From Bradyrhizobium sp. WD16 (GTDB lineage: Bacteria > Pseudomonadota > Alphaproteobacteria > Rhizobiales > Xanthobacteraceae): a stretch of DNA of 64,000 nucleotides. The DNA is taken from contig NZ_CP028908.1 of the NCBI RefSeq assembly GCF_024181725.1, forward strand, positions 5,631,501-5,695,500. The letters run 5' to 3'. A program made the position numbers and the translations under genes. How positions within the stretch are numbered: the first letter of the stretch is position 1; the number at the start of each line of letters is the position of its first letter. Under the pieces are notes generated by a model that had not been told where the DNA came from, searched no databases, and saw only the letters and a program-made list of their open reading frames with translations. This document shows, piece by piece, positions 6,483 through 62,511 of this stretch.

Positions 6483-7412
6483 ATGAAGCTCACCGAGTCA
6501 GCCCAGGGCGTCTTTTCGATCGCCGTCACCCCGTTTCTGCCCGATGGCCGCCTCGACATGGATTCGGTTGGTCGCATGACAGATTTTTATGTGCGCTGCG
6601 GCGCGACCGGACTGACCATCCTCGGCATCATGGGCGAGGCGCCGAAGCTCAGCGAAGAGGAGTCGCTCGCTATCACCAAGGCGGTGACCTCCCGCACCAA
6701 GGTGCCTGTAATCGTCGGCGTCTCGGCCCCGGGCTTTGCGGCAATGCGGTCGCTGGCGCGCGGCGCCATGGAGCGCGGCGCCGCCGGCGTCATGATCGCG
6801 CCGCCATCGCACCTGCGCACCGACGACCAGATCATCACCTATTACGCCCAGGCGGTGGAGGCGATCGGCGACGACATTCCCTTCGTCATCCAGGATTACC
6901 CGCTCACCCTCACCGTCATCATGACGCCGAAGGTAATCCGGCAGATCGTGCAGAACCATCCCTCCTGCGTCATGCTCAAGCATGAGGACTGGCCGGGCCT
7001 GGAAAAGATCACGGCGGTGCGCGGCTTCGAGAACGACGGCTCGATGAAGCACATCTCGATCCTGACCGGCAACGGCGGCCTGTTCCTCGATTTCGAAATG
7101 GAGCGCGGCGCCGATGGCGCCATGACCGGCTACGCCTTCCCCGAGATGCTGGCCGATGTCGTCCGGCTGTCCAAGGCCGGTGAACGAGACAAGGCCCACG
7201 ACCTGTTCGACGCCCATCTGCCGCTGGTGCGCTACGAGCAGCAGCAGGGCGTCGGGCTCGCCGTGCGCAAATATGTCCTGCAGAAGCGCGGTGCCATCGC
7301 CTCCGATGCCCAGCGCAAGCCCGGCTCGTCGCTGAGCGCGGCCGCCAAAGCCGAGGTCGAGTACCTGCTCGCCCGCCTCGCCCGGCACGATCCGCGGGCG
7401 AAGATCGGCTAG
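6483..7412 (+). CDS. DapA-family aldolase/dehydratase
   Basis: This is a 309-residue class I lyase of the dihydrodipicolinate synthase/N-acetylneuraminate lyase superfamily, starting at MKLTESAQG. The barrel shows GATGLTILGIMGEAPKLSEEE (phosphate/carboxylate-loop region), FVIQDYPLT with the expected active-site tyrosine, and CVMLKHED with the probable Schiff-base lysine. The C-terminal half (GADGAMTGYAFPEML, then RYEQQQGVGLAVRKYVLQKRG) resembles 2-keto-3-deoxy-sugar-acid dehydratases more than lysine-biosynthetic DapA. It is divergent from the IlvD/Edd dehydratase 120 bp away and probably acts on its 2-keto-3-deoxy product (inference). The stop codon TAG at 7410-7412 is part of the CTAG that starts the repeat locus. 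Confidence 0.85.
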   Translation: MKLTESAQGVFSIAVTPFLPDGRLDMDSVGRMTDFYVRCGATGLTILGIMGEAPKLSEEESLAITKAVTSRTKVPVIVGVSAPGFAAMRSLARGAMERGAAGVMIAPPSHLRTDDQIITYYAQAVEAIGDDIPFVIQDYPLTLTVIMTPKVIRQIVQNHPSCVMLKHEDWPGLEKITAVRGFENDGSMKHISILTGNGGLFLDFEMERGADGAMTGYAFPEMLADVVRLSKAGERDKAHDLFDAHLPLVRYEQQQGVGLAVRKYVLQKRGAIASDAQRKPGSSLSAAAKAEVEYLLARLARHDPRAKIG

Positions 7413-7740
7413 TGTCCCGTTTCCAACGTTCGTATTCCTTCGCAGCAGGCGCTCATACGAACGTTGGAAACTAAAGGGACACTAGCATCAATATGATTCT
7501 AGTGCGGTTTAGGATCTGACGCTCGTATGACGAATTCGCTGCAAATGCTGATACGAGCGTCAGATCCACCGCACTAGTGTCCCGTTTCCAACGTTCGTAT
7601 TCCTTCGCAGCAGGCGCTTCTACCAACGTTGGAAACAAAGGGACACTAGCATCAATATGATTCTAGTGCGGTTTTGGATCTGACGCGCGTATGAAGAACT
7701 CGCTGCAATACTGAAACGAGCGTCAGATCCACCGCACTAA
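7409..7740. repeat. Repeat locus: tandem B-linker-A composites (B1-A2, B2-A3)
   Basis: Four CTAG-bounded hairpins lie in a row: B1 7409-7485, 13 nt linker 7486-7498 (CATCAATATGATT), A2 7499-7577, B2 7574-7649, linker 7650-7662 (same sequence), A3 7663-7740. A2 and B2 share the CTAG at 7574-7577; the last boundary has decayed to CTAA. Family B has outer stem TGTCCC/GGGACA, a TAAA-type bulge and inner stem GTTTCCAACGTTCGTA. B2 carries mutations in one arm (CTACCAACG). The array lies between convergent genes, with the DapA-like gene's stop inside the first CTAG. Confidence 0.92.
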
Positions 7741-7786
7741 AGCGTTTTCCCGCAAGGTGTCGCCGTGGGCCAGACGCGCGCGCCGC

Positions 7787-10003
7787 TCACGCCGGCGCGC
7801 CGTCGAAATCCGATGGCTGGCGCTGGCTGATCGAAATCTCGGCGCCGCCGTCGTTGCGCAGAATCTGCAGCGAGATGTTGCGGCCGTAGCGGTACAGCGC
7901 CATGTCGACCCGGCCGTTGCCGAGTTCGAGATTGCGCAGCACCACCATGTCGAGAAAATTCGGCAGCATCGGCGCCACCAGCCGGATCCGATTGACTTCC
8001 GGCTCGCATTGAATGCCGAGACAGGCCTGCAGCATGGCGAGCGGCGCCGCGCCGGCCCAGGCCTGGGGCGCGCAGGCCACCGGATAGAGCGTCGGCGCCT
8101 GGCCCTTGATCCGGCGGAAGCCGCAGAACAGTTCGGGCAGCCGCCGCAGTTCCATGTAGGATGCCGCGCCGCCGATCGCCTCGAACACGGTCGCCACCTC
8201 GTCCTTGAAGCCGTAGCGACACAGGCCAAGCGCGATCATCGCGTTGTCGTGGGGCCAGATCGAACCGTTGTGGTACGACATCGGATTGTAGCGGCTCTCG
8301 CCCTGGGCGACAGTGCGAATGCCCCAGCCGGAGAAGAACCGTGGCGACATCAGGCCGGTGGCAACGCGCCGGGCGCGATGCGGGGATGCCAGTCCGCCGA
8401 ACAGCACGTGCCCGGCATTGGATGTCTGCACCCGGCAAGGCTCGCCGTCACCGTCGAGGGCGATGGCATAGGTGCCGATGTCCTCGCACCAGAAGCGCTG
8501 GTCGAAGCGGATCGCAAGCCGCAGCGCCTCTTCGTCGAGGCGCAGCGCCTGTTCGTCGAAACCAAGGCGGCGGGCCACCCCTGAGATCGATCGCCTGGCG
8601 GCGAAGACGTAGGCCTGCACCTCGGCGAGCGCGATCGCGCCTTCGGCGAGGCGGCCGTCGGCGTGGAACACCGAATCGTAGGAATCCTTCCAGCCCTGAT
8701 TGGCCAGTCCGCCTTCGACGTTGCGGCTGTGGCGCAGAAATCCGTCCTGGTCCGCCGCGCAATGCCGCCCGATCCACTCCAGCGCGGCGCTGATCTGAGG
8801 CCAGAGTGTCTTCACGGTGGCGTAGTCGCCGGTCCGTGAGGCATATTCTCCGGCGAGCAGCACGAACAGCGGCGTCGCATCGACGCTGCCGTAATAGAGC
8901 CCGAACGGTACTTCCCGCAGCTTCGCCATCTCACCACAGCGCATCTCGTGGAGGATCTTGCCCGGCTCGGCGTCGTTGAGCGGATCGACGCAATCGGCCT
9001 GGAACGCCGCGAGCCGCGACAACACCCCGCGCGCCAGGGACGGCATGCACCACAGCATCTCCAAGGCGGTGATCAGGCCATCGCGGCCGAACGTCGTCGA
9101 GTACCAGGGAATTCCCGCATAGGGATACGCTCCTTCAGCGGTCTCCGTGGTCAGCATGCGCAGGTCGGCGAGCGAACGGCTCAGCACGCGGTCGAACACG
9201 TCGCTCGACGTGCCGATGGCGACCGTCTCGCTGCGCTGACGCCTCAGCTCGCGCGAGGCCTGCGCCATGCCCTTGAAGAAGTTGATCGGTGCCCCCTCCC
9301 CCTCGGTGCCGCAGCCTACCGCCACGAAGATCGAACTGCGGGCATGGGGATCGAGCACGAGATCGTAAGTGGCGACGTCGTCTTCGAGCTGGTCGGGCTG
9401 GGGCTCGAACCGCAGCGTCGTCGTCCTGATCTCGCCGTCGAGACCGAGATAGGACAGGCGCGCCGTTCGCTCGTCTCGCCAGACCGGACGGAGCGAACCG
9501 CGACGGGCGCGGTGGCTGCCGCGGGCCTCGAAGATGTCGGCGAAATCGCTGTCGAAGCTCAGGGCCAGCGTGACGCCGACACGGCTCTGGCCATGGTTCT
9601 GGATGCCGAAGCGAATGTAGAAATGTGCGTTCCAGATGAAGCAGGTGCGGGTGATGTGGATGGTGTCCTTGGCGAGCACCAGTCGGTCGCCGCGGTAGAT
9701 GTCCGGGTTGGTGAGGTCCGCCGTCAGGCTGGTGTTGTCGTCGCGGACATTCGAGCCCAATAGAAGCGGCTGAACGCCGTTGATGGTGAGTTCGAGCAGC
9801 GACAGATAGCGTGTGTCTTGATTGAAGATGCCGTCAGGTTCGCCGAGCGCGGCACCGATGTCTCCATAGTCGTTCAGCACGGCGAAAGTGTCGTTGTGCT
9901 TGAGCGTACGGCGCGGCCGTTCGGACGGCCCCTTCGCAGCGATATAGAACTGCGCCTGTTCGGATCTGTCGGCCGCGACGGCGGCTACTGATGTGATGGT
10001 CAA
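7787..10003 (-). CDS. Amylo-alpha-1,6-glucosidase / glycogen-debranching-type protein
   Basis: This is an about 738-residue protein with an N-terminal glycogen-debranching beta domain (RPRRTLKHNDTFAVLNDYGD ... GIFNQDTRYLSLLEL, about residues 30-220) and a C-terminal (alpha/alpha)6 barrel containing GIPWYSTTFGRDGLITALEMLW and YHNGSIWPHDNAMIALGL. Such proteins hydrolyse alpha-1,6 branches of glycogen-like glucans. There is no ATG near the first family-like residues; I chose the TTG at 10003 (LTITSVAAV) with a GGGGG tract upstream. The open frame extends to 10438 but without family-like sequence. The nearby GT4 glycosyltransferase and ABC exporter suggest a linked glucan function. Confidence 0.85.
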   Translation of the reverse strand: MTITSVAAVAADRSEQAQFYIAAKGPSERPRRTLKHNDTFAVLNDYGDIGAALGEPDGIFNQDTRYLSLLELTINGVQPLLLGSNVRDDNTSLTADLTNPDIYRGDRLVLAKDTIHITRTCFIWNAHFYIRFGIQNHGQSRVGVTLALSFDSDFADIFEARGSHRARRGSLRPVWRDERTARLSYLGLDGEIRTTTLRFEPQPDQLEDDVATYDLVLDPHARSSIFVAVGCGTEGEGAPINFFKGMAQASRELRRQRSETVAIGTSSDVFDRVLSRSLADLRMLTTETAEGAYPYAGIPWYSTTFGRDGLITALEMLWCMPSLARGVLSRLAAFQADCVDPLNDAEPGKILHEMRCGEMAKLREVPFGLYYGSVDATPLFVLLAGEYASRTGDYATVKTLWPQISAALEWIGRHCAADQDGFLRHSRNVEGGLANQGWKDSYDSVFHADGRLAEGAIALAEVQAYVFAARRSISGVARRLGFDEQALRLDEEALRLAIRFDQRFWCEDIGTYAIALDGDGEPCRVQTSNAGHVLFGGLASPHRARRVATGLMSPRFFSGWGIRTVAQGESRYNPMSYHNGSIWPHDNAMIALGLCRYGFKDEVATVFEAIGGAASYMELRRLPELFCGFRRIKGQAPTLYPVACAPQAWAGAAPLAMLQACLGIQCEPEVNRIRLVAPMLPNFLDMVVLRNLELGNGRVDMALYRYGRNISLQILRNDGGAEISISQRQPSDFDGAPA

Positions 10004-10245
10004 GGGACCCCCGATCGCGGCTGGCGACGAAATTTGGTCCGGCGGCGGCGTTGCGGCAGAAGTGGAACCCGGACGCACGATTGCAGCACGGAAGAAGGCA
10101 CAAGGATACTGCCTTTGTGTCGGCCTTTTCTCTTGGCCTTTATGCATCCCGGCGGCTTCCATCGCGCTCACGCGCGAGCGCCGTCCGGTTCCGGACTTTC
10201 GCGGAACCCAACCAGACCCTGCATTCCCGCAGGCGGAGAGACCCG

Positions 10246-15221: not shown

Positions 15222-15225
15222 CGCT

Positions 15226-15338: not shown

Positions 15339-17783
15339 GTGCCGCGACCGATCGTCTTTGTGCTCCCTGTCCTGTTCTGCGCCCTGTTCGTCCTGGGCGC
15401 CGCGCCCGCACGCGCCCAGCCCCCCTCGCCTGTACCACCGTCAGCGGCCGCAACCGCACCCATCGCGCGGCCGGCGCTGACGCCCGAGGAAGCCAGGCGC
15501 GCGCTCGAAACGCTGCAGGATGACGCCAGGCGCGCGCAGGTGATCGAAACGTTGCGGGCGATCGCCGCCGTGCCGCAGACGGCGTCGCCACCGGCAACAC
15601 CTTCATCGTCGCCACAGGCCGCGCCCGCAACGCCGGGCGCGAGCACCAAGAGTGACGGCAAGGACGACAGCATTCCGCCCCTTGCCGCCGACAGCCTCGG
15701 CGCTCAGTTGCTGCTCGCCATCTCCCGCAATCTCGATGACATCTCCACCGAACTGAGCCAGGGGGCGCAGACCGTCACGCGCTTTCCGGAGCTCTGGCAT
15801 TGGCTGGTGCGGACCGTTTCGGATCCCGCCTCCTACAATCTGCTTCTCGACATCGCCTGGAAGCTCGCGCTGGTGATGGGCGCCGCGCTGCTCGCCGAAC
15901 GGCTGGTCGCCCGCCTCGTCGCGCGGATGCTGGTCTACCTCGAAACCCATCTGCCGGGCGCGGCGCGCCGGCCGGCTCCCGAAGTTGCCGATGCCATGCC
16001 GCTGGTGCCGCCGCTCGAAACCGAACGGCCCGAACAAGTCCGCAAGCGCCACATGGTGCTGACCCGCGCATGGCAATCGCTGATCCGGCTGCCTTATGTG
16101 CTGGCTCGTTTCGTCGTCGATCTCGGTCCGGTGCTCGCCTTCACGGCGACCGCGATGGTCCTGCTCAGCACACGCCTCGGCGAACTCGGCACCACCCGTC
16201 TCGTCATCCTCGCCCTGATCGACGCCTACGCCCTGTTGCGGGCGATCGAGTGCCTGACCCGCATGGCGGTGTCTTCAGGTCCGCTCAGTCTCGTCACAGT
16301 GCGGCACGAAACCGCGGCTTACGTCTCCATCTGGGTCAGACGGCTCGTCACCGTCGGTGCTTTCGGCTTCGCTCTTGCCAATGCCGCCTACCTGTTGGGA
16401 CTTTACCAGTCCGGCTATTACGCGCTGCTGCGCATCGTTCTGCTGGTGATGCATCTGCTGGTCGTGGTCATCATCCTGCAATGCCGCCAGGCCGTCGCCC
16501 GGGCGATCCGCGCCGATCGCGACGGCACCGCCTTCCTAGCAACGAGCCGCAATCGCCTCGCCAGTCTGTGGCACATTCCGGCGATCGCGCTGGTCTTGGC
16601 GCTCTGGGTGGTCTGGGCACTCAATGTCCGCAACGGCTACGCGCTGCTCCTGCAGTACTTCGTCAGCACCGCCGCGGTGCTGCTGGTGGCGCGGCTGCTC
16701 ACCATCATCGCGCTCGGCGTGATCGATCGCCTGTTTCGCATCCACCCCGATCTGTCGCAGCGCTTCCCCGGCCTCGAGGCCCGCGCCAACCGCTATCTGC
16801 CGCTGTTGCGCAACACCGTATCAACGGTGATCTCGGCGGCAACGCTGATTGCGGTGCTGGAGGTCTGGGGAATCGACGCCATGGTCTGGTTCGCCGTCGG
16901 CCAGATCGGCAACCGTCTGGTCTCCGCCGTCACCACCATCGCCATCGCCGTCTTCGCGGCGCTGGCGGTCTGGGAGGTCGGCAACGCGCTGCTCGAACGC
17001 CAGCTTAACCGCCTCGTCCATGACCATCATCATGCCCGCGCCGCCCGCCTGCGCACCTTCATTCCGATGCTGCGCACCACGCTGTTCGCGGTGATCGCCG
17101 CCGTGGTGGCGTTGACCGCGTTGAGCGAGATCGGCGTCAACGTCGCCCCCCTGCTCGCCGGCGCCGGCATCGTCGGCATCGCGGTCGGCTTCGGCTCGCA
17201 GAAGCTGGTGCAGGACCTGATCACCGGATTGTTTCTGCTGCTCGAGAACGTCGTCCAGGTCGGCGACACCGTCACCGTGTCAGGCGTCACTGGCACGGTG
17301 GAGAATCTGTCGATCCGCACCATCCGCCTGCGCGATGGCGACGGCTCGGTGCATATCGTGCCCTTCAGCTCGGTGACCAGCGTGACCAATGCCAGCCGCG
17401 GCAAGGGCAATGCGGTGGTCAACGTCTCCATCGCCTTCAAGGAGGATACCGACCGCGCCAGCGCCGTGCTGAAATCGATCGGCGCCGAATTGCGCAACGA
17501 CCCGGACTTCCGCCATCTCATCCGCAGCGATCTGGAGCTCTGGGGCGTCGACAAGGTCGACGGCAGCATGGTGACGATGGTCGGACAGATTCCCTGCACC
17601 GACGCCGGCCGCTGGCCGGTCCAGCGCGAATTCAACCGGCGCATGAAGAAGCGCTTCCAGGAGAACGAACTCGAGATCGCGACGACGAGGTCGACGGTCA
17701 TTCTCCAGGCACCGCCGCCGGCCGAACCCGACGAGGTCCAGCAAGGTCGCGAGCGGCGCCGCATGCCGGCGCACCCCGGCTAG
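15339..17783 (+). CDS. Large MscS-family mechanosensitive channel
   Basis: This 814-residue protein has a signal peptide (FVLPVLFCALFVLGAAPARA), a periplasmic Pro/Ala-rich region, about ten transmembrane segments, and a C-terminal MscS core. The pore helix region LLAGAGIVGIAVGFGSQKLVQDLITGLFLLLEN (near residue 600) precedes the beta domain VQVGDTVTVSGVTGTVENLSIRTIRLR. The size resembles the YbiO/MscK-type channels that release solutes on hypo-osmotic shock. The start is a GTG at 15339 with CCGGAG upstream. The stop TAG at 17781-17783 lies inside the CTAG opening the following repeat locus. Confidence 0.88.
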   Translation: MPRPIVFVLPVLFCALFVLGAAPARAQPPSPVPPSAAATAPIARPALTPEEARRALETLQDDARRAQVIETLRAIAAVPQTASPPATPSSSPQAAPATPGASTKSDGKDDSIPPLAADSLGAQLLLAISRNLDDISTELSQGAQTVTRFPELWHWLVRTVSDPASYNLLLDIAWKLALVMGAALLAERLVARLVARMLVYLETHLPGAARRPAPEVADAMPLVPPLETERPEQVRKRHMVLTRAWQSLIRLPYVLARFVVDLGPVLAFTATAMVLLSTRLGELGTTRLVILALIDAYALLRAIECLTRMAVSSGPLSLVTVRHETAAYVSIWVRRLVTVGAFGFALANAAYLLGLYQSGYYALLRIVLLVMHLLVVVIILQCRQAVARAIRADRDGTAFLATSRNRLASLWHIPAIALVLALWVVWALNVRNGYALLLQYFVSTAAVLLVARLLTIIALGVIDRLFRIHPDLSQRFPGLEARANRYLPLLRNTVSTVISAATLIAVLEVWGIDAMVWFAVGQIGNRLVSAVTTIAIAVFAALAVWEVGNALLERQLNRLVHDHHHARAARLRTFIPMLRTTLFAVIAAVVALTALSEIGVNVAPLLAGAGIVGIAVGFGSQKLVQDLITGLFLLLENVVQVGDTVTVSGVTGTVENLSIRTIRLRDGDGSVHIVPFSSVTSVTNASRGKGNAVVNVSIAFKEDTDRASAVLKSIGAELRNDPDFRHLIRSDLELWGVDKVDGSMVTMVGQIPCTDAGRWPVQREFNRRMKKRFQENELEIATTRSTVILQAPPPAEPDEVQQGRERRRMPAHPG

Positions 17784-18254
17784 TGCCCGCTTTCCGAAGT
17801 TCGTGCTACATCGTGGCAACCTCTTACACGAACTTCGGAAAACAACGGGCACTAGCAAATTTATGATTCTAGTACCCTTTTATTTCCGAAGTTCGTGTCC
17901 GGACGATGCCGCAACTGACTCACGAACTTCGGAAACAGGCTACTGGTGTCCCGGTTCTAACGTTCGTATCACTTTGCAGCGAGCGCTCGTACGAACGTCA
18001 GAACCAAAGGGACACTAGTGTGGCGTCTCGCAATTGCCTATGCCCTTCGCGGCAAGCTCCTGTAGGCAATTGCGAGACATAAGCCGCACCAGCTTTTTGA
18101 TTTTGCTAGTGTCCTTATGTCTCCGAATGACCGTGCGAGCATGAGGCAAATGGAGCGGTAATTCGGAGACAGGACACTAGTGTGGTTTTGGATCTGACGC
18201 TCGTACGGAGAATTCGCTGCGACGCTGATACGAGCGTCAGATCCACCACACTAG
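17780..18254. repeat. Repeat locus with all five families (C-linker-C, B, D-linker-E, A)
   Basis: Six hairpins fill the convergent intergenic region: C1 17780-17855, linker 17856-17868 (CAAATTTATGATT), C2 17869-17946, B3 17943-18018, D1 18015-18092, linker 18093-18105 (CTTTTTGATTTTG), E1 18106-18180, A4 18177-18254. Neighbours without a linker share one CTAG (or the decayed CTGG at 17943). D1 ends in CCAG instead of CTAG. A4 has outer stem TGTGGT/ACCACA where A1 has TGCGGT/ACCGCA, a compensated change. The mscS stop codon is inside the first CTAG, and the FAD oxidase gene ends 14 bp after the last. Confidence 0.92.
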
Positions 18255-40292: not shown

Positions 40293-40458
40293 CTAGTGTC
40301 CCGTCTCCGAATTACCGCTACGTTTGCCTCGCGCTCGCACGGTCATTCGGAGACATAGGGACACTAGCAAAATCAAAGTGCTAGTGTGGCTTATGTCTCG
40401 CAATTGCCTACAGGGGCTTGCCGCAAAGGGCATAGGCAATTGCGAGACGCCACACTAG
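40293..40458. repeat. Repeat locus E-linker-D (E2, D2)
   Basis: E2 (40293-40367) and D2 (40381-40458) are joined by the linker CAAAATCAAAGTG (40368-40380). This is the reverse orientation of the D-linker-E unit at 41495. Family E has outer stem TGTCCC/GGGACA, inner GTCTCCGAAT/ATTCGGAGAC and a bulge ATA; family D has GTGGC/GCCAC, bulge TTAT and inner GTCTCGCAATTGCCTA. A GACA before the first CTAG may be a trace of another lost hairpin. The composite sits inside the exopolysaccharide operon, 12 bp before the next start codon. Confidence 0.92.
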
Positions 40459-40469: not shown

Positions 40470-41498
40470 ATGACCAGCCGAGCGACCCTGCAGATCAATC
40501 TCCATCCCTCCGACGTGCGCCACGCCGTCTGGACGCTGGATCACCAGCTCGACACCTGGAGCAGCCAGGTGGAGCGGACCGTGCTGACCGTCGACACCCG
40601 GCCGAGCCGCAGCGGCCGCTATCGCGATGCGTTGTATGACGACAACCGCCGCAAGCTGTTTCACCACCTGGAAGCACTCGCGGCGCGGCGCTCCGGCGTC
40701 GAGATCGTCGAGGTCGACTATTCGCCACGGGCCATGGATGCGGCCCGGCAGCGCTACTTCCCCCGGTCGGACGCCTATCCGCAGAAGGCGTTCGACGGCG
40801 GCCCGTTCCACGTCTACTTCCACGGCCTGATGACGGCCGACGCCGATTACGTCGTTCACATGGACAGCGACATGCTGTTCGGCGGCGGCAGCCAGAGCTG
40901 GCTCGACGAGGCCTTCGAATGGTTCGACAAGGTCCCCGAGGCGTTGTTCGCGGGGCCCCTGCCCGGTCCGCCCCGGCATGATGGCGCGCTCGGCGGCCTT
41001 CATGGCTCGCTGCCCGGCACGCGGCCGCTGCCGGCGCCGAAACGCCTCGCCGCACCCTATCCCGCTTACCGCTTCCACAGCGTCAGCACGCGCATCTTCG
41101 TCTTCAATCAGAAGCGTTTCGATACCATGTCGGGAGGCTTCGACATCCTGCGTCCCGATCTGCGCCGCCGGCTGCGAGCCCGCCTGTTTCACCAGTCGCC
41201 GTCGACCATGCCTGCGGAAGAGGCCATGACCAACACGCTGCTCGCGCGCGAGCTCTGCCGCGTCGACTTCCTCGGCAGCGGCCTCGGCCTCTACTCGTTG
41301 CACCCGCCCTATCGCTCCGAGCGTTTCTATCGCGAATTGCCGGGCCTCATCGCCCGCATCGTTACCGGCGATATTCCCGAAGGCCAACGCGGCGATTATG
41401 ATGTCAATGCGAGCATGATCGACTGGACCGAAGCCTTGCGGCATAAGACCTGCCCCCGCCGCGTCGCCCGCGCCATCAACGCCTTGCTGGCGCACTAG
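40470..41498 (+). CDS. Probable GT-A glycosyltransferase of unassigned family
   Basis: This 342-residue protein starts at MTSRATLQINLHPSD; the open frame continues upstream through repeat D2, but that is repeat sequence. It has a DxD motif in YVVHMDSDMLFGGG (near residue 130) and no other clear signature, so I call it a glycosyltransferase from the DxD motif and the exopolysaccharide context. It begins 12 bp after a repeat, with no room for its own promoter and no good ribosome-binding site. Its stop TAG (41496-41498) is part of the CTAG of the next repeat locus. Confidence 0.68.
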   Translation: MTSRATLQINLHPSDVRHAVWTLDHQLDTWSSQVERTVLTVDTRPSRSGRYRDALYDDNRRKLFHHLEALAARRSGVEIVEVDYSPRAMDAARQRYFPRSDAYPQKAFDGGPFHVYFHGLMTADADYVVHMDSDMLFGGGSQSWLDEAFEWFDKVPEALFAGPLPGPPRHDGALGGLHGSLPGTRPLPAPKRLAAPYPAYRFHSVSTRIFVFNQKRFDTMSGGFDILRPDLRRRLRARLFHQSPSTMPAEEAMTNTLLARELCRVDFLGSGLGLYSLHPPYRSERFYRELPGLIARIVTGDIPEGQRGDYDVNASMIDWTEALRHKTCPRRVARAINALLAH

Positions 41499-41823
41499 CG
41501 TGGCGTCTCGCAATTGCCTATACCTTTGCGGCAAGCCTCTCATAGGCAATTGCGAGACATAAGCCACACTAGCTTTTTGATTTCGCTAGTGTCCCGATGT
41601 CTCCGAATGACCGTGCGAGGGTGAGGCAAACGAAGCGGTAATTCGGAGACGGGACACTAGTGTGGTGGATCTGACGCTCGTTTCAGTATTGCAGCGAGTT
41701 CTTCAAACGAGCGTCAGATCCAAAACCACACTAGAATCATAATGATGCTAGTGTCCCCTTGTTTCCAACGTTCGTATGAGCGCCTGCTGCAATGGGATAC
41801 GAACGTTGAAAACAGGACACTAG
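41495..41823. repeat. Repeat locus D-linker-E then A-linker-B (D3, E3, A5, B4)
   Basis: Four hairpins: D3 41495-41572, linker 41573-41585 (CTTTTTGATTTCG), E3 41586-41660, A5 41657-41734, linker 41735-41747 (AATCATAATGATG), B4 41748-41823. E3 and A5 share the CTAG at 41657-41660. In each composite the bulge-bearing arm is next to the linker. Loops in bulge-first orientation contain GCTGCAA (A5, B4), TTGCCGCAAAGG (D3) or GAGGCAAA (E3). The stop of the upstream glycosyltransferase is inside the first CTAG, and the next gene starts 15 bp after the last. Confidence 0.93.
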
Positions 41824-48698: not shown

Positions 48699-48955
48699 CT
48701 GGCAAAATCAAAAAGCAGGTGCGGCTTAAGTCTTGCAATTGCCTGCAGGGGCTTGCCGCAAAGGACGTAGGCAATTGCGAGACGCCGCACTAGTGTCCCG
48801 TCTCCGAATTACCGCTTCGTTTGCCTCACCCTCGCACGGTCATTCGGAGACATCGGGACACTAGCAAAATCAAAAAGCTAGTGTGGCATATGTCTCGCAA
48901 TTGCCTACAGGGGCTTGCCGCAAAGGGCACAGGCAATTGCGAGACGCCACACTAG
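48699..48955. repeat. Repeat locus (linker)-D-E-linker-D (D4, E4, D5)
   Basis: A lone 13 nt linker (48703-48715, CAAAATCAAAAAG) flanked by decayed CTGG/CAGG precedes D4 (48716-48793). E4 (48790-48864) shares CTAG with D4, and is joined by the same linker (48865-48877) to D5 (48878-48955). The orphan linker implies a lost hairpin on its left. D4 has outer stem GCGGC/GCCGC where D5 has GTGGC/GCCAC, a compensated change. The region is between convergent genes, and the last CTAG contains the glnE stop codon. Confidence 0.92.
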
Positions 48956-51927
48956 CGCCGCTCGGTCGCAATCCCCAGCACGTCGTTGAAGATGCCGCGG
49001 ACATCCGCGGCGATCTCCACCACCTGCGCCTCCAGCGCCGAGAAGTCCGGCGCGTCGCCGGCGCGCGCCAGCATCCGCAGCAGCCCCTCGCCGGCGCTGG
49101 CCGGCGTGAATTTGGTGCTGACGCACAGCCGCAGCACCTGGATCAGATCGTGATAGAGCAGCGCCGCCGAGCGCAGCACGTCGGCGTCGGCCGGCCGCAG
49201 CAGTCCGAGCCGCGCGGCGTGATCGAGCACCTGCAGCGTCGAGACGCTGAGGATGTCGGGGTGTTCGGCGGCATGAACGAGCTGGAGGTACTGGGCGATG
49301 AACTCGATGTCGACCAGCCCGCCGGCGTAGTATTTCAGATCCCAGACGTCGCTCTCGCCCTTCTCCTCGGCGATGGCGTGACGCATCTCGACGACGTCGC
49401 GCGCGGTGATGCCTTGGTCGCGCGGGCGTGTCAGCACCTTGCGGATCACCGCCTCGACCTGCTGCTGCAGCGCCGGCGACGACGAGATGACGCGGGCGCG
49501 GGTCAGCGCCATGTGCTCCCAGGTCCAGGCCTCCTCGTCCTGGTAGACGGCGAAGGCATCGATGCGCGAGGCCACCGGCCCGGCGCGGCCGGAGGGCCGC
49601 AGCCGCATGTCGACTTCGTAGAGCACGCCGTAATTGGTGCGGGTGGTGAAGGCGCTGATCAGCCGCTGGGTCAGCCGCGCGAAATATTGCGCGCCTTGCA
49701 GCGAGCGCTCGCCGTCGGAATCGGGCGCGGCCTCGTCGAAGTCGTAGATCAGGATCAGGTCGAGGTCGGACGCCGCCGTCATCTCGCGGCTGCCGAGCTT
49801 GCCCATCGCCAGAATCGCCGTCTCCTGGTGCTTGATCCGGCCATACTGGGTGGCGAACTGCTCGCCGACGAGGCGATGAACCGTGCGGACGATGCCTTCC
49901 GCCACATCGGCGAAGGCGATGCTGGCCTGCTGCGCCGAGACGGTGCCGGAAAGGATGCGGGTGCCGATCAGGAACAGGCTCTCTTGGCCGTACAGGCGCA
50001 GGCGGTCGAGAAACTCCTCGTAGGAGCCGGCATCCGCCAGCGTCGCGGCGAGGCGCTCGGACACCTCGCGGCGGTCGGGCATGCCGCCGAAGAAGCGCGG
50101 ATCGATCAGCCCGTCCATGATCTGCGGCTGGCGGGCCAGCATGTCGCCGAGCCGCGGCGCGACGCCGAGGATCATGGCGACGAGCCCGACCAGTTCGCTG
50201 TTCTGGCCGAGCAGCGTGATCAGGCGGCCGCCGCGCTGCAATGCCTGGAGAAAGCGATCGAAGGCGGCGACCGCGGCATCGGGATCCTCGGCCTGCGACA
50301 GCCCCTGGATCAGCCCCGGCAGAAACTCCCTGAAGGCGGCGAGCGTCGTCTCCACCCGCAGCGCGCGATAGCTGCCGGCGAGCCAGACGCGGGTGCATTC
50401 GGCGACCATGCGCGGCTGCTTGAAGCCGAGCTTGAGGAGATGGCCGAGCAGATGCATGTCATCGGGGCCGGCGGCGAAATCGATCGCCGGCTGCGCCGCG
50501 GCGGCGGCCGGCTCGCTCTCGAACAGCCGGCTGTAGTGCTCCTGGACGCGGCCGAGATGGCCGACGAGGTCGGCGGAAAAGGCGTCGCGGCTCTCATAGC
50601 CGAAGAAGCGGGCGAAGCGCTCCACCGCCTCGGGCTCCTCGGGCAGGCTGTGGGTCTGCTCGTCCGCGATCATCTGCAGCCGGTGTTCGACCTGGCGCAG
50701 GAACAGATAGGCGCTCTCCAGCTCGGCATGGGCGCCCTTGCCGATCCAGCCGGTCGCGGCCAGGATCTGCAGCGCCTCGAGGGTGGGCCGCACCCGCAAT
50801 TCCGGATGGCGGCCGCCGGCGATCAGCTGCTGGGTCTGGGCGAAGAACTCGATCTCGCGGATGCCGCCGCGGCCGACCTTGACGTTGTGGCCTTCGACCG
50901 CAACCTCGCCGTGGCCCTTGAAGGCCTGCATCCGGCGCTTCATGTCGTGGACGTCGGTCAGCGCCGCGAAATCGAGATGCTTGCGCCAGACGAACGGCGC
51001 GATATCGCCGATCACCCGCTCGCCGGCGGCGGGGTCGCCGGCGCAGGGCCGCGCCTTGATCATCGCCGCGCGCTCCCAGGTGCGTCCCTCGCGCTCGTAG
51101 TAGTTGAGCGCGGCGTCGGTCGAGATCGCCACCGCCGTGGAGGCCGGATCGGGACGCAGCCGCAGGTCGACGCGGAAGACGTAGCCGTCGGCGGTGCGCT
51201 GGGTCAGCATGCGCGCCATGGCCTGGGTCAGGCGCACGAAGAACGGCTGCGGCTCGACGTCGGGATCGAGGTTGGTCGCCTCGGGATCGAAGAAGACGAT
51301 GAGGTCGATGTCGCTGGAATAGTTCAGTTCGCCGGCCCCCATCTTGCCCATGGCGAGCACGACGAGACCGCTGTCCTGTTCCGGCCGCTCGGCGTCGCGC
51401 GGCCTGATCCTTCCGCGCGCCGCCTCCTGGGCGAACAGGAAGCGCAGCGCGCTTTGCACGGCGGTGATCGCGACCTCGGTCAGCGCCTTGGTGACCCGCA
51501 TCACCGGCCACACCCCGCCGATGTCGCCGAGCGCGATCAGCAGCGCCGCCTCGGACTTCATCCGGCGCAGCGCCACCATCACCTCGGCCTCGCTGCCGGC
51601 GGCGGCGCAGGCGGCAACCGTGTCGCCGATCAGGCGCTCGAGGCGGCGATCGGGATCGGCGGTCAGCACGCGGCGGGCGCGGAGCGGATCTGCCCGCAAC
51701 AGGTCGAACAGATAGGGCGAAGCTTCGGCGATGGCCTCGAGGATCGTCCGGGCGAGCGGCGAGCGTGCCAGCACATCCTCGATCGCCGCGGCCTCCACCG
51801 GAGCGATCTCCGTCAGCCACTCGGACAGCCGTCGCCGCGCCGCCTCGGCGTCACCGAGATACGGCGCGCCGACGAAACGCGCAGCCAGGGAGGAATCATC
51901 CGCGGCGCCCATCGCGGGACCAGTCAT
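48952..51927 (-). CDS. glnE: Bifunctional glutamine synthetase adenylyltransferase/adenylyl-removing enzyme
   Basis: This 991-residue protein controls glutamine synthetase by adding or removing AMP in response to PII signalling. It has two nucleotidyltransferase domains: one near residue 204 with YSSDIDLIVFFDPE and one near residue 720 with AASDLDLILIYDFDE, each followed by regions rich in paired RLRPSG/RLRPDP motifs. Length is typical. The neighbouring two-component system and degP follow the order remembered for Bradyrhizobium-type genomes. Its stop codon (TAG, 48952-48954) is inside a repeat CTAG. Confidence 0.95.
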   Translation of the reverse strand: MTGPAMGAADDSSLAARFVGAPYLGDAEAARRRLSEWLTEIAPVEAAAIEDVLARSPLARTILEAIAEASPYLFDLLRADPLRARRVLTADPDRRLERLIGDTVAACAAAGSEAEVMVALRRMKSEAALLIALGDIGGVWPVMRVTKALTEVAITAVQSALRFLFAQEAARGRIRPRDAERPEQDSGLVVLAMGKMGAGELNYSSDIDLIVFFDPEATNLDPDVEPQPFFVRLTQAMARMLTQRTADGYVFRVDLRLRPDPASTAVAISTDAALNYYEREGRTWERAAMIKARPCAGDPAAGERVIGDIAPFVWRKHLDFAALTDVHDMKRRMQAFKGHGEVAVEGHNVKVGRGGIREIEFFAQTQQLIAGGRHPELRVRPTLEALQILAATGWIGKGAHAELESAYLFLRQVEHRLQMIADEQTHSLPEEPEAVERFARFFGYESRDAFSADLVGHLGRVQEHYSRLFESEPAAAAAQPAIDFAAGPDDMHLLGHLLKLGFKQPRMVAECTRVWLAGSYRALRVETTLAAFREFLPGLIQGLSQAEDPDAAVAAFDRFLQALQRGGRLITLLGQNSELVGLVAMILGVAPRLGDMLARQPQIMDGLIDPRFFGGMPDRREVSERLAATLADAGSYEEFLDRLRLYGQESLFLIGTRILSGTVSAQQASIAFADVAEGIVRTVHRLVGEQFATQYGRIKHQETAILAMGKLGSREMTAASDLDLILIYDFDEAAPDSDGERSLQGAQYFARLTQRLISAFTTRTNYGVLYEVDMRLRPSGRAGPVASRIDAFAVYQDEEAWTWEHMALTRARVISSSPALQQQVEAVIRKVLTRPRDQGITARDVVEMRHAIAEEKGESDVWDLKYYAGGLVDIEFIAQYLQLVHAAEHPDILSVSTLQVLDHAARLGLLRPADADVLRSAALLYHDLIQVLRLCVSTKFTPASAGEGLLRMLARAGDAPDFSALEAQVVEIAADVRGIFNDVLGIATERR

Positions 51928-54171: not shown

Positions 54172-54378
54172 CTGTGTGCCGGGCGTATGCGCATTCGATG
54201 ATGGTTGATTGTCGGATGATGAAGGGGCGGAGGTCCGGATGGCGGCCCGGACAACGTCGGACGTCGGGACCGGGTCTGACGAAGTCACGATGTTAGGCTC
54301 CGGTCACCATGGCGCGCAGTTCGCGCCCATGCAAGCGCCCGTTGAGCGCCCGATGGGGCGCCCTCTTGAAAAGGGGAC

Positions 54379-54410
54379 GGGCGGCGAAGTGGGGGAACGC
54401 TTCGCCGCCC
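54379..54410 (-). terminator. Hairpin in the degP-response regulator gap
   Basis: An 11 bp inverted repeat GGGCGGCGAAG/CTTCGCCGCCC encloses a 10 nt loop. It is perfect in the stem and very GC-rich, downstream of degP on the minus strand. Confidence 0.5.
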
Positions 54411-54458
54411 GCGGGTCCTTCCGACAGAGGGGGGCTGTATCCACCGGAAGGTGATGGT

Positions 54459-54483
54459 GGGGACGGGCCGATGGCCCGTCCCC
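54459..54483 (-). terminator. Hairpin closest to the degP stop
   Basis: A perfect 11 bp inverted repeat GGGGACGGGCC/GGCCCGTCCCC has a 3 nt loop, about 70 bp past the degP stop codon. No U-run is visible on either side. Confidence 0.55.
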
Positions 54484-54553
54484 CGGAAAGGACCGTCGGC
54501 GGGGGCGACATTGCCGGCGATTCTTCCCTAACTCGATACTGACGCGTTTGCGG

Positions 54554-56128: not shown

Positions 56129-56268
56129 GCAAATCTCCAGCCTTCTCGAGGGCGCTGCGCCCTGCTGCATGACTGAAGATGGGGCTGCCGCCCTTACAGC
56201 GCCCTGTCGGCGGCATTAATCTTTCGTAATGGAGCGGTTGCGCCGAAGCCCTGTCCGGCCGTGGCGGC

Positions 56269-58790: not shown

Positions 58791-59317
58791 TTCGCGGTGG
58801 CCTCCGCGGTCGGTCCGGCGCCCTTCGCGCCGCTGGTCGCCGATGCATTCGCGGCATCGCCCTCCGTCACGCCCTTCCTGGCGTAATCATTCATCCAGTG
58901 ACCGTCCTTCTTGAGGGCATCGGCCACCTCCTTGGGCATGTAGTTCTCGTCATGCTTGGCGAGGACGGTGTCGGCGCGGAACACGCCGCCGGCATCGATC
59001 GCGCCCTCGGCGACGACGCCCTGGCCCTCGCGGAACAGGTCGGGAAGAATGCCCTTGTAGGCCACCGGCAGATCGGCCTTGCCGTCGGAGACCTCGAACT
59101 TCACCGCGAGGTTGTCGCCGCGCACCAGCGAGCCCGGCTGCACCAGGCCGCCGAGACGGAAACGCTTGCCGGGCGGAATGTGTTTTTCGGCGGCCATCGA
59201 CGGGGTCGAGAAGAACACGATGGAATCCCGCAGCGCGTTGAGCACCAGCGCCGCTGCCACCGCGAGCACCGCGATCGCGCCGCCGATCATGGTCAAACGC
59301 CGCTGCTTCCGGGTCAT
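58787..59317 (-). CDS. ccmE: Heme chaperone CcmE (CycJ)
   Basis: This 176-residue membrane-anchored chaperone has one N-terminal helix ([20 protein letters not shown]), an OB-fold beta barrel, and the heme-binding HxxxY motif [10 protein letters not shown] (His122, Tyr126). It receives heme from CcmC and passes it to CcmF. Residues after about 150 form a flexible Ala/Gly-rich tail. Its stop overlaps the ccmF start (ATGA). Confidence 0.96.
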
Positions 59318-59418
59318 CCGCCCACTCCTTCGCCTTGCGTCCTGCGCCTGCCGCCCTGGCGCCGATCGGATCGGAGCGAAGGCTCAGGCCTGTCGTTTTG
59401 CCGCGTCGTCGTCACGCG

Positions 59419-60528
59419 CTACCCATCGAGGCCGAGATCCTTCAAGCCGTCGTTGAGCTTCTGCAACCGCGCGGCGTCGCGGCCGAGCGCCTGACGCGCA
59501 TCGGCCCGCGCCGCCTTCGCCTTGTCGGTCTCGCCGAGCACCATATAGGCACGAACCAGCCGCAGCCATCCCTCGGGGTCGTCGCCATTGTCCTTCAGGC
59601 GCGCGGCGAGACGATCGACCATGCCGCGAATCATGGTGTCGCGGTCGCCGGCCGGCATGTTCTTGGCGGCGGCGACGTCCGCCGCACTCGGCCCGGGCGC
59701 AGCATTTCCGCCGACACGGGCCAGCGCCGCCTGGACCAGCGGCCGCCACGGCGCGCTCGGCGGCGCGCCCGCCAGCAGCGCCTGCCAAGTCGCCGCGGCC
59801 TCGGCCGTGCGGCCGTCCTGCTCGGCGGCAAGGCCGAGAAAATAGCGCGCCTTGACGTCGCCGCCGTCGAGCGCGGCGGCGCGTTCGAATGCCGCCTTGG
59901 CATCGGCGGTGACGACGCCGCCGGCGGCGGCCACCATCGCCTCGCCGAGATCGGAATGCCGATCCGCCGTCTCGCCGCCGGAGGTGATCAGATTGCGGAA
60001 CGCGCGCACCGCATCGTCATAGCGTCCCTGCCGCATCAGCACCGGGGCAAGCACCTGCCAGCCGCGGGCATCGCCCGGATTCTTTTCCAGGTGAGCCTGA
60101 ACCTGCGCCACCAGGGCGTCGAGCGAGGCCGTCGTTGTCGCCTGCTGGCGCGTCCGCTCGGCGAGCGGCAGGTCCGGCAATTGCGGCGAGCCGAGGCTGA
60201 GATAGGTCGCGATGGTCAGAGACGGCAGCCCGATCAGCGCCACCAGCGCGACCGCACGCCGCAGGTTGCGCGACGTGGCCGCCGACGAAGCTCCGCTCTC
60301 GGCGGCGCTCGCCGCCAACAGCCGCCGCCCGATCTCGGCGCGCGCCGCCTCGGCCTCCGCCGCGCCGATCAGCCCCGCGGCCTGATCGCGCGCCACTTCG
60401 GCCAGCTGGTCCCGATAGACCACCGACTCGCTGCCGCCACCGACCTTGGCCGGCCTTCGCCCAAGCGGCCAGAGCACGGCGAAGACCGCGGCGACCGTCA
60501 TCAAGGCAAGGATAAACCACAGTGACAT
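59419..60528 (-). CDS. ccmI: Cytochrome c biogenesis protein CcmI (CycH)
   Basis: This 369-residue protein has an N-terminal membrane helix (MSLWFILALMTVAAVFAVLWPL), a cytoplasmic loop with a leucine-zipper-like segment, a second helix near residue 90, and periplasmic TPR repeats (DARGWQVLAPVLMRQGRYDDAVRAF; DVKARYFLGLAAEQDGRTAEAAATW). It presents apocytochrome c to the heme lyase. The ATG at 60528 begins the typical MSLWF start; the frame extends to 60579 without family sequence. Confidence 0.93.
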   Translation of the reverse strand: MSLWFILALMTVAAVFAVLWPLGRRPAKVGGGSESVVYRDQLAEVARDQAAGLIGAAEAEAARAEIGRRLLAASAAESGASSAATSRNLRRAVALVALIGLPSLTIATYLSLGSPQLPDLPLAERTRQQATTTASLDALVAQVQAHLEKNPGDARGWQVLAPVLMRQGRYDDAVRAFRNLITSGGETADRHSDLGEAMVAAAGGVVTADAKAAFERAAALDGGDVKARYFLGLAAEQDGRTAEAAATWQALLAGAPPSAPWRPLVQAALARVGGNAAPGPSAADVAAAKNMPAGDRDTMIRGMVDRLAARLKDNGDDPEGWLRLVRAYMVLGETDKAKAARADARQALGRDAARLQKLNDGLKDLGLDG

Positions 60529-60714
60529 GAAAGACTTACGCCGGGATTCGGCCCGGATCCGAAGGCACGACAGCCGCACACAATGGCCGGGTTACACCAC
60601 GGCTGGTACCCCCCGCGCAATTGCGATTTGGCGCGGTCCCCTTCAGGTCTTTACCGGAGGTGGCGAGCACAATTGGGGCGCCTTGAAGGTTCCCGGCGAC
60701 TGGCAGGCGGGCAA

Positions 60715-62106
60715 CTAACCGGCGCGGGAGGCCTTGCGCTCGCCGGAGAGCGCCACATCGGCGGCCTTGCGCATCAGGGCGGCATAGTCGTGGCCGAACA
60801 GCACGTCGCAGAAACGGATGGCGGCATCGACCTGCATCTGGCGGAACGGCCGCGTCTTGGGGTCGCTGGCGCGTAGCGATTCGACCAGGGCCTGGGTCGC
60901 GGCCTCGGTGTATTGCTGCAGATCCGAGAAGGTTCGCAGCGTCACCTCGTTGATCGCCAGCTCGCTGGCGTAGGTACGGCAGACCGCGACGAAATCGATC
61001 AGCGCCGCAGTCTCCTCGATCTCGGTCGGATCGAGGCGAGAGGCCGCGGTGATGTCCTTGTCCGGACGCTGGCGCAACAGCCGCCGCACCCGTCCCGGCA
61101 CGCCCTCGAGTTCGGCACGCAGGATGTTGGAGATCTCGGCGCGGATCGCGGAGAGCCGCTTGCCCCAGGCGGACTCGTTGCGGATGTCGAGTTCGGTGCG
61201 CAGGCCGCGCAGCCCGTCATGGATGATCTTGAGCCGGTGCGACAGGCTCTCGAGCCGCCCCTGCTTCATGTCGGTGCGCAGTTCCGACACCAGCTCCGAC
61301 AGATCGTGGATGACCATGGCGACGGCAACGCCGTAATTGGTGGCGGCGACGCGGATCTCGTCGTCGGAACCGGCGACGGCGACCGCAAGGCGGATCACCT
61401 GCCACGGCGACGCCAGCTTCTGGATCAGGAGCGACAGCGAAAACGGCAGCGCCTCGGCCGTCTGCAGCGACGGCACGTTCATCGCCGCCTGCACCGCGGC
61501 AAGCTGGGACTCGGCGAGGTTGCGCACGTTGCCGGCAATGCGCGCCGAGAAACTCTCGAGCGGTTCGCGATTCTTGAGCACCACCGCGGTGGCCGCCAGG
61601 TCTTCGACCACGGCCGGCCCGCCGACCCGGCTCAACGCCCGCTGGTCGGCGCCACGCCCCGTCGAGGCGACCTGCTCGATCGCATTCGCCGCCGCGAGCT
61701 GGACCTTGCGCGTCGCCTGCTCCACCGTCGCGGCGGGGCCGCTGCGCAAGGCGGCATCGAGCTCGGCGACTTCGCCGACGATGGCCTCGCCCTTGAGCCA
61801 GTTCCAGATCTGGTTCAGCGACACGCGCCGGATCTGGCCCGGCCGCAACGCCGCCTTGGTGTCGACCAGGAAGGGCTCGAGCGGGCGAAATACCAGGCGC
61901 GCGGGGTCTTCGGAGCGTTGCCGCTCATTGCTGTCGGTGGCGCGCACGACCAGGCGCAGCTGCTCCAGCACCAGGCTCGCCACCGCCACGTCCTGGCCGC
62001 GCTCGACCGCACGCTCGAACTCGCGCATCAGCAGCGCCTGCGACTTCGGCGGAAGCTGTGCGAGAAAGTCCCTGAGGCGCTCGAGTGACTGCGCAGCTAG
62101 TGCCAT
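60715..62106 (-). CDS. Conserved hypothetical, mostly helical protein
   Basis: This 463-residue protein starts at MALAAQSLERLRDFLAQLP. It is hydrophilic and largely helical with coiled-coil-like stretches (LRTDMKQGRLESLSHRLKIIHDGLRGLRTELD) and no catalytic motif that I recognise. A protein of this kind next to ccmI is remembered in Bradyrhizobium-type genomes, but I know no function. It has no signal peptide and no clear membrane segment, so it is probably cytoplasmic. The start is uncertain between 62106 and 62145. About 186 bp separate it from ccmI. Confidence 0.7.
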   Translation of the reverse strand: MALAAQSLERLRDFLAQLPPKSQALLMREFERAVERGQDVAVASLVLEQLRLVVRATDSNERQRSEDPARLVFRPLEPFLVDTKAALRPGQIRRVSLNQIWNWLKGEAIVGEVAELDAALRSGPAATVEQATRKVQLAAANAIEQVASTGRGADQRALSRVGGPAVVEDLAATAVVLKNREPLESFSARIAGNVRNLAESQLAAVQAAMNVPSLQTAEALPFSLSLLIQKLASPWQVIRLAVAVAGSDDEIRVAATNYGVAVAMVIHDLSELVSELRTDMKQGRLESLSHRLKIIHDGLRGLRTELDIRNESAWGKRLSAIRAEISNILRAELEGVPGRVRRLLRQRPDKDITAASRLDPTEIEETAALIDFVAVCRTYASELAINEVTLRTFSDLQQYTEAATQALVESLRASDPKTRPFRQMQVDAAIRFCDVLFGHDYAALMRKAADVALSGERKASRAG

Positions 62107-62344
62107 AGTTCGAGGAATCCGGTCGTGCGTGCCGGGAACGCCCATGGGGTCCCGATCGGTTGATAGCAGCAGCGACGTTAAGGACGTGTTGAGGAAGAGC
62201 CCGGGCGGTGCGAATTGTGCCCCGCCCCCGGCGGCACCGGCGACCGCCTCTCCGGCCCGAGCCGCTCTCTGCCCAAACAGAGAAAGCCTTTCAGGCGAAG
62301 CCGATACCGGCTGACATTGAGAAAATACTTGGAGGTAAAAACCT

Positions 62345-62511
62345 CTAGTGCGATGGATCTGACGCTCGTATCAGCGTTGCAGCGAATTCTCCGTACGCGC
62401 GTCAGATCCAAAACCACACTAGAATCATAGCCATGCTAGTGTCCCTTTGGTTCTAACGTTCGTACGAGCGCTCGCTGCAAAGTGATACGAACGTTAGAAC
62501 CGGGATACTAG
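62345..62511. repeat. Repeat locus A-linker-B (A6, B5)
   Basis: A6 (62345-62422) and B5 (62436-62511) are joined by the linker AATCATAGCCATG (62423-62435). B5 has inner stem TTCTAACG/CGTTAGAA, whereas B1, B2 and B4 keep TTCCAACG, with CGTTGGAA in B1 and B2; the C-G to T-A change is compensated on both arms in B5. The last CTAG contains the stop codon (TAG, reverse strand) of the downstream kinase gene. The preceding 62146-62344 holds no recognisable gene. Confidence 0.93.

What the first reader, a model, noticed from the sequence alone, without database searches (positions are those of the whole stretch)
7409..62511. Five unrelated-sequence hairpin families share one architecture: a candidate undescribed repeat system
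Seen: 22 near-complete palindromes of 72-79 bp (A x6, B x5, C x2, D x5, E x4) at seven loci. Their core sequences differ, yet all have CTAG ends, an outer stem starting TG and ending CA, one 3-5 nt asymmetric bulge, a long inner stem and a loop near 20-25 nt. Families with different stems but the same plan suggest a shared mobilising or binding factor. Known palindromic repeats (REP/BIME, ERIC, MITEs) were compared from memory and none fits exactly. Novelty itself is unproven.
Basis: partly seen in the sequence, partly recalled or inferred. Interest (0 to 1): 0.92.

Follow-up and report, generated by a model that had tools for sequence, protein, structure and literature searches.

The report
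Paired-hairpin miniature IS630-type transposons
The hairpins are halves of small two-part jumping DNA elements that carry the ends of a known transposon family, and a tiny offset in each inner arm may be what makes the two halves move as one piece.

Summary
In detail: 22 hairpins at seven loci. The "five families" are halves of three two-part elements of 166-169 bp: CTAG-[hairpin 1]-CTAG-N13-CTAG-[hairpin 2]-CTAG (A+B, D+E, C+C). The genome has 421 spacer motifs against 14 control matches. Units nest in one another's CTAGs, and some copies are identical, so they are recent mobile elements. The same plan with other stems was found in nine other genomes (eight genera) of the family.

Their outer arms resemble terminal inverted repeats (TIRs) of an IS630 (Tc1/mariner-like) subgroup that targets CTAG; nine copies of one such IS lie in this genome. 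A matrix made from IS630 TIRs fits outer arms in register (187 of 204) and inner arms only after a 3-4 nt shift (194 of 204). In 1.66 Mb, 248 of 278 bulged hairpins have the spacer on the inner side. Of 11 bulgeless E-type hairpins found genome-wide, none has a partner across a spacer.

Best reading: IS630-mobilised MITEs whose inner ends are disabled by a register shift, so the pair moves as one unit. Weak point: 8 of 21 element-rich genomes show no transposase of the subgroup. New variant of a known kind; mobilisation is inferred.

The parts
1..78 (+). Hairpin 2 of a type I unit whose hairpin 1 lies just outside the window (unit G000:C1:5631412-5631578)
7409..7577 (+). Type I unit: hairpin 1 (7409-7485), spacer CATCAATATGATT, hairpin 2 (7499-7577). 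CTAG 7409-7412 ends in the TAG stop of ORF 5853-7412
7574..7740 (+). Second type I unit sharing CTAG 7574-7577 with the first; right end is CTAA
17780..17946 (+). Type III unit (hairpins 17780-17855 and 17869-17946, right end degenerate); left CTAG holds the stop codon of a mechanosensitive-channel ORF
17943..18018 (+). Type I hairpin 1 with degenerate left end
18015..18180 (-). Type II unit in reverse (hairpin 2 18015-18092, spacer, hairpin 1 18106-18180) lying between type I hairpins 1 and 2, whose own spacer is missing
18177..18254 (+). Type I hairpin 2, sharing CTAG with the type II unit
40293..40458 (+). Type II unit; 7 places in the genome, this one included, are 100% identical over 166 bp
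41495..41660 (-). Type II unit in reverse
41657..41823 (-). Type I unit in reverse, sharing CTAG 41657-41660 with the type II unit
48699..48793 (+). Remnant: type II spacer and hairpin 2 (48716-48793); hairpin 1 not seen
48790..48955 (+). Type II unit; right CTAG coincides with the stop codon of a minus-strand ORF (48952-51927)
62345..62511 (-). Type I unit in reverse; CTAG 62508-62511 coincides with the stop codon of a HATPase_c-domain ORF
63880..63946 (-). Degenerate type I hairpin 2 remnant (weak, 28 bits)

Best explanation
These are non-autonomous miniature transposons (MITEs) moved in trans by IS630-family (Tc1/mariner-like) transposases that insert at CTAG, probably duplicating the central TA. 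Each unit is two quasi-palindromic hairpins around an AT-rich spacer of about 13 bp. Only the outer arm of each hairpin has the register of a real IS630 TIR. The inner arm is its near-complement with 3-4 extra nt after about position 6-10, which takes the internal motif out of register with the CTAG tip. Shown by computation: unit structure, genome-wide copies, nested insertions, resemblance of outer arms to IS630 TIRs, the register difference, and the lone state of most hairpins without the extra bases. Inferred: that the transposase mobilises the units, that the offset disables the inner ends so that the whole pair moves, and that losing it (perhaps by arm-to-arm correction within the palindrome) releases a 72-75 bp hairpin as a mobile unit of its own.
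For: Mobile whole units: type I at 42 and type II at 50 near-full-length places at 89-100% identity, 7 of the type II identical (lower bounds, since 40 of 420 and 40 of 466 candidates were scored); 421 spacer motifs against 14 control matches. Insertion into CTAG: 8 units of 158-159 bp and one of 164 (5 extra bases) sit in the inner CTAG of another unit, with that unit's spacer and correct partner hairpin beyond (12 parsed cases, the other 3 being 68, 70 and 232 bp; 19 further hairpins without a direct spacer gave no such parse). IS630 link: an IS630-family IS (DDE_3) of about 1.18 kb sits in the internal CTAG of a type II unit; 9 copies, 8 scoring as the query itself and 1 with a stop. Its ends match the type II outer arms at 13-14 of 22 positions, type I outer arms at 9-12, inner arms at 3-7; 19 of 725 other CTAG-side 24-mers reach 14 (these include element remnants). 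Homologues: 67 of 79 loci tested gave an end pair with CTAG on both sides, 59 with CTAGTG on both (the search favoured CTAG; 66 of the 80 loci and 13 others were used). Register: matrix from 14 TIRs of 7 loci against 102 units: outer arms best at offset 0 in 187 of 204, inner arms at +3 or +4 in 194 of 204 (offsets -2 to +7 after position 6). Best ungapped match to 128 TIRs: outer beats inner in 21 of 22 hairpins, 1 tie. Bulges face inward in 31 of 32 parsed units from nine other genomes. Bulge loss: 11 bulgeless II1 hairpins genome-wide, none with a hairpin-2 partner across a spacer, 10 without spacer, against 248 of 278 bulged hairpins with spacer on the inner side; p about 9e-9, not corrected for common descent.
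Against: No transposition was observed. 8 of 21 genomes with at least 10 spacer motifs, including single-contig G122 (345 motifs), show no transposase of the subgroup by profile search, and 8 of 30 genomes without motifs do have one (13/21 vs 8/30, p = 0.02; 4 of the 13 hits, in G003, G054, G067 and G075, are weak and partial; the 55 genomes were picked by me from 149). Single outer arms are often not striking: share of background reaching their best match is 0.003-0.02 for type I but 0.06-0.09 for type II, and up to 0.68 in G033. The matching IS was not found for type I in this genome (the ends of all its IS630-type elements were not examined). 15 of 94 type II outer arms fitted best at +6. 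13 of 107 pairs have one bulge facing away from the spacer, probably nested units at the second inner CTAG, not checked one by one. Two of the eight bulgeless hairpins in 1.66 Mb sit beside a spacer, one of them in a normal pair, and 14 of 278 bulged ones have neither spacer nor hairpin on the inner side. The bulgeless hairpins could descend from few events. That inner arms stay near-complements (0.919 identity) is not explained.
Confidence: 0.8

Rival explanations
1. REP/BIME-like elements moved by a Y1 (HUH) transposase of the RAYT/IS200-IS605 type, with hairpin bulge and CTAG tetranucleotide as single-strand recognition signals.
For: Hairpins with a bulge, a fixed tetranucleotide at the foot, head-to-head pairs and large numbers resemble REP dimers (passages of PMC3733652).
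Against: PF01797 rings in only 14 of 33 genomes searched and in none of element-rich G122, G064, G070, G101, G067, G146, G054, G131; this genome has a single match. The outer arms match IS630 TIRs in register. REPs are described as 20-40 bp with GTAG or CGTC at one end.
Confidence: 0.05
2. IS630-derived MITEs, but the bulge has no role in mobility: it is a relic of the founding event, and pairs persist because single hairpins are poor substrates or are lost as perfect palindromes.
For: The tests show association, not cause; bulgeless hairpins are few (5 of 215 in 864 kb of this genome, none of 44 in 260 kb of G122) and could descend from few events. Copies are recent and related.
Against: Offset size, place and inward side are kept in units of nine genera with different stems, and bulgeless hairpins of types II1, II2 and I2 are found without a partner.
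Confidence: 0.25
3. Chromosomal structure or RNA elements (terminators, 3'-end stabilisers, protein-binding sites) kept for the host, with CTAG sites merely attracting IS630 insertions.
For: 47 of 259 chain ends coincide with the TAG stop of an ORF of at least 150 aa, against 53 of 566 sides of other CTAGs. Three different IS630-type elements were seen in CTAGs of type II units. Paired changes in type I hairpin 1 (9) exceed all of 200 shuffles.
Against: Identical dispersed copies, nested insertions and patchy distribution (62 of 149 family genomes) are those of mobile DNA. Over the four hairpin families few changes are compensated (13 paired changes against 85 outer-only and 105 inner-only; three of four families do not exceed their shuffles). 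CTAG insertion at a stop codon leaves the frame intact, which explains the bias by survival.
Confidence: 0.07

Closest known systems
RUP elements of Streptococcus pneumoniae (107 bp, TIRs like those of IS630-Spn1)
   Same: Short non-autonomous repeats with IS630-family ends, high copy number (passages of PMC3049150); found in clusters with elements inserted into one another (passage of PMC10969869).
   Different: RUP is called simple there; here two complete hairpins flank a spacer and the inner arms are out of TIR register. Sequences were not aligned here.
IS630 / ISY100 (Tc1/mariner-IS630 family)
   Same: DDE transposase, TIRs, insertion at TA (passages of PMC2170065, parts of its abstract included); preference for CTAG (title of Tenzen and Ohtsubo 1991 in its reference list, the only part seen).
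   Different: The units have no gene.
Rhizobium RIME and Brucella Bru-RS repeats
   Same: Intergenic palindromic repeats of alphaproteobacteria; RIME recalled as holding two palindromes (recalled, not tested).
   Different: Only mentions and reference titles were seen; sequences were not compared.
REP/BIME and RAYT systems; Bradyrhizobium Br-REP1/2
   Same: High-copy extragenic palindromes, often in head-to-head dimers (passages of PMC3733652 and PMC5082802).
   Different: Smaller hairpins, GTAG/CGTC tags, Y1 transposase; the Br-REP1 consensus CCGGAATCTCGAGATTCCGG does not resemble these stems by eye.

Membership tests
MITE of the IS630 (Tc1/mariner) family | Short, no coding capacity, terminal inverted repeats like those of an IS630-family element | tested here: met
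   Unit 166-169 bp; outer arms match IS630-subgroup TIRs in register; the match of single arms ranges from strong to unremarkable
MITE of the IS630 (Tc1/mariner) family | Insertion at TA (here in CTAG) with TA duplicated | tested here: inconclusive
   Insertion at CTAG shown by nested units and by 116 of 140 parsed rows with CTAG on both sides (some type II places occur twice in the 140). A TA duplication inside CTAG cannot be told from a 4-bp duplication by sequence; 2 rows have CTGG on both sides
MITE of the IS630 (Tc1/mariner) family | Autonomous partner with matching ends in the same genome | tested here: inconclusive
   Type II: IS with partly matching ends (13-14 of 22), 9 copies. Type I: none identified. 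G055: local IS and local unit agree at 18 of 22. G122 and seven other element-rich genomes: no subgroup transposase found
MITE of the IS630 (Tc1/mariner) family | Mobilised in trans by the transposase | not testable with these tools
   Needs an excision or transposition assay
REP/RAYT (GTAG or CGTC REP) | 20-40 bp palindrome tagged at one end by GTAG or CGTC | tested here: not met
   Hairpins 70-79 nt with CTAG at both ends
REP/RAYT (GTAG or CGTC REP) | Y1 transposase in the genome | tested here: not met
   One PF01797 match in this genome, none in several element-rich genomes, so not a general feature; its flanks here were not examined
Known Rfam RNA family | Match above a family's gathering score | tested here: not met
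   Whole window: only BjrC80 at 54373-54532, outside the hairpins
RIME / Bru-RS | Sequence similarity | not tested
   Sequences not at hand
Named ISfinder MITE | Match in ISfinder | not testable with these tools
   ISfinder is not available

The most novel reading that the evidence does not exclude
The 3-4 nt inner-arm offset is a built-in register lock: it lets a palindromic transposon end keep its hairpin while disabling one of its two TIRs, so that two hairpins are forced to move as one composite MITE, and its loss converts half of the element into a new independent mobile unit. The same lock is kept with unlike stem sequences in nine genera of one alphaproteobacterial family, as if stems turn over to follow different IS630 transposases while the plan stays.
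Probability: 0.5. Interest if true: 0.75.

Novelty: new variant of a known kind. Interest (0 to 1): 0.62.

Why it matters
It turns a puzzling set of unlike palindromes into one mobile-element superfamily with a clear test: 3-4 bases should decide whether a hairpin moves alone or only as part of a pair. It bears on how composite MITEs arise, how transposases read end spacing, and why some alphaproteobacterial genomes hold hundreds of hairpins, often at gene ends where CTAG contains the stop codon.

Tried and rejected
RAYT/Y1 transposase as mobiliser: PF01797 in 33 genomes, absent from several element-rich ones. Rfam: no match in the hairpins at gathering scores. Close relatives for empty sites: only 3 genomes of the genus are held and a 1.8-kb query gave at best 79% identity over a substantial stretch in the other two, so nested copies inside the genome were used instead. 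A 1.28-kb insert between type II hairpin halves at G000:233818-235101 was set aside: by eye an IS3-like element (not searched against a family library), without a matching end pair. Compensatory change within families: tested and mostly weak. Organism name: not established; genome contigs gave the IS630 subgroup in many phyla but not this genome. Of 51 spacer motifs in the fetched loci of other genomes 32 parsed into units; the other 19 were dropped unexamined. Literature for a paired-hairpin IS630 MITE: searches (open-licence PMC library only) listed none that describes it, as far as the titles and abstract starts listed and the passages read show; subscription papers and ISfinder were not searched.
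Full report
What was checked. The window is bases 5,631,501-5,695,500 of a single-contig 5.95-Mb genome. Its name was not established; an Rfam hit to the Bradyrhizobiaceae sRNA BjrC80 points to that group of alphaproteobacteria. All 22 hairpins are there; CTAGTG is about seven times commoner than in shuffles.

The real unit. In 864 kb of this genome (the window and 40 stretches chosen because they hold known copies) 217 strict CTAG-ended hairpins are mostly 75-79 nt long; neighbours lie 13 nt apart (78 cases) or share one CTAG (39), with 6 other short gaps. Sorting by stem shows that hairpin I1 pairs with I2 and II1 with II2, with nested exceptions. In 1.66 Mb, both bulges face the spacer in 93 of 107 pairs; in 13 one faces away, and in one a member has no bulge. 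Whole units of 166-169 bp recur at 89-100% identity (42 type I places, 50 type II places, lower bounds); type III is rarer and more decayed. The motif CACTAG-N10-17-CTAGTG occurs 421 times against 14 for the reversed control. In alignments of 23 type I and 47 type II units loops and spacers are largely conserved too. Spacers are 73% AT in DNA that is 34% AT (143 spacers, 1.66 Mb).

Movement. 116 of 140 parsed rows have CTAG at both ends (some type II places appear twice, once per strand). Eight units of 158-159 bp and one of 164 sit in the inner CTAG of another unit whose spacer and correct partner lie beyond, so uninterrupted copies serve as empty sites. Tandem units share one CTAG. These look like insertions of the whole unit at CTAG.

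The likely mobiliser. A search for separated halves led to an IS in the internal CTAG of a type II unit at 276,636-277,819. It encodes a 360-aa protein with DDE_3 and helix-turn-helix domains, that is, an IS630-family transposase. The genome has nine copies, eight scoring as the query itself and one with a stop. Its two ends match type II outer arms at 13-14 of 22 positions, type I outer arms at 9-12 and inner arms at 3-7; 19 of 725 other CTAG sides, remnants included, reach 14. Relatives in G055, G145, G131, G033 and others end in CTAGTG with motifs such as TGTCCCGAGTCATAAGTTCGC. Of 79 loci tested from many phyla, 67 gave CTAG on both sides and 59 CTAGTG on both (the search gave CTAG a bonus). 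In G055 the local unit's outer arm and the local IS end agree at 18 of 22 positions.

The bulge. Of 51 spacer motifs in loci from nine other genomes (eight genera), 32 parsed into units; stems differ, the plan is the same, and 31 of 32 have bulges facing inward (the exception shares a hairpin with a neighbouring unit). A position matrix built from 14 IS TIRs fits outer arms at offset 0 in 187 of 204 and inner arms at +3 or +4 in 194 of 204 (102 units, 70 of them from this genome). With copies collapsed to 116 distinct arm pairs the counts are 106 at 0 for outer arms and 106 at +3 or +4 for inner arms. Against 128 TIRs without gaps, outer arms beat inner arms in 21 of 22 hairpins, with one tie, though the best match of a single outer arm is not always above background (shares from 0.003 to 0.68). 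The bulge is therefore an offset that puts the inner arm alone out of IS630 register.

A natural experiment. Five of 215 hairpins in 864 kb had no offset. A genome-wide search for bulgeless II1 hairpins, with up to 3 mismatches, gave 11. None has a hairpin-2 partner across a spacer within the 110 nt viewed on each side; one (L250) is followed by a spacer-like remnant; L253, L254, L256 and L257 abut a neighbouring unit through a shared CTAG and L252 a partial hairpin; the other five stand alone. In 1.66 Mb, 278 bulged hairpins had on the inner side spacer plus CTAG in 245, spacer only in 3, another hairpin in 16, and something else in 14; of 8 bulgeless hairpins 5 stood alone (one of these is L250 with its remnant), 1 abutted a hairpin and 2 lay beside a spacer. 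The contrast is strong, but copies are related and the test treats them as independent.

Distribution and what speaks against. The motif is in 62 of 149 genomes of the family, up to 417 copies. In 385 genomes drawn from the class, 20 have it, this genome included; of the other 19, 18 have one to five copies and one has 14. Y1 transposases do not follow it. Transposases of the IS630 subgroup are in 13 of 21 genomes with at least 10 motifs, 8 of 30 with none and 1 of 4 in between (4 of the 13 are weak, partial hits), a weak association. Eight element-rich genomes show none, so either other IS630 lineages serve there, or the mobiliser has been lost, or the link is incomplete.

Placement. 47 of 259 chain ends coincide with the stop codon of an ORF of at least 150 aa, against 53 of 566 sides of CTAGs outside elements. 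Insertion at CTAG restores CTAG, so a TAG stop survives; this fits tolerance of such sites rather than a host function.

Known kind. MITEs with IS630-family ends are known: RUP, proposed to be moved by IS630-Spn1 (passages). TA target and duplication are established for ISY100 (passages), and CTAG preference for IS630 is in the title of a paper in that reference list. I did not find the paired-hairpin plan or the register offset in what the searches named in Tried and rejected showed. Rating: new variant of a known kind.

Noticed in passing
G000:C1:277817-278871 (in L021): A second IS630-like element (ends GAGCAGACTCCG / GAGCAGGCTCCG, DDE_3 fragment) is inserted in the same CTAG; several IS lineages seem to use the CTAG-rich units as targets.
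   Followed up: partly
G000:C1:1229292-1230554: Another IS630-subgroup relative (two frames; 10 copies of the 243-aa frame in the genome) sits at a CTAG between hairpin 2 and spacer of a type II unit, with ends TCGCCCG / TCGCTCG.
   Followed up: partly
spacers, e.g. 7486-7498 and 40368-40380: The 13-nt spacer is AT-rich and alike across genera (often CAANNTTATGATT-like), with a TATGAT or ATCAA core; it may be a bending site or a promoter element (guess).
   Followed up: partly
G000:C1:1932672 region (L254): Left of a bulgeless hairpin lie three copies of GTTTCACGTGAAAC, resembling ParB parS sites (recalled), possibly near the replication origin.
   Followed up: no
54373-54532: Rfam sRNA BjrC80, minus strand.
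   Followed up: no
all families: Inner arms stay near-complements of outer arms across genera although they are out of TIR register; what keeps them so is unexplained.
   Followed up: partly
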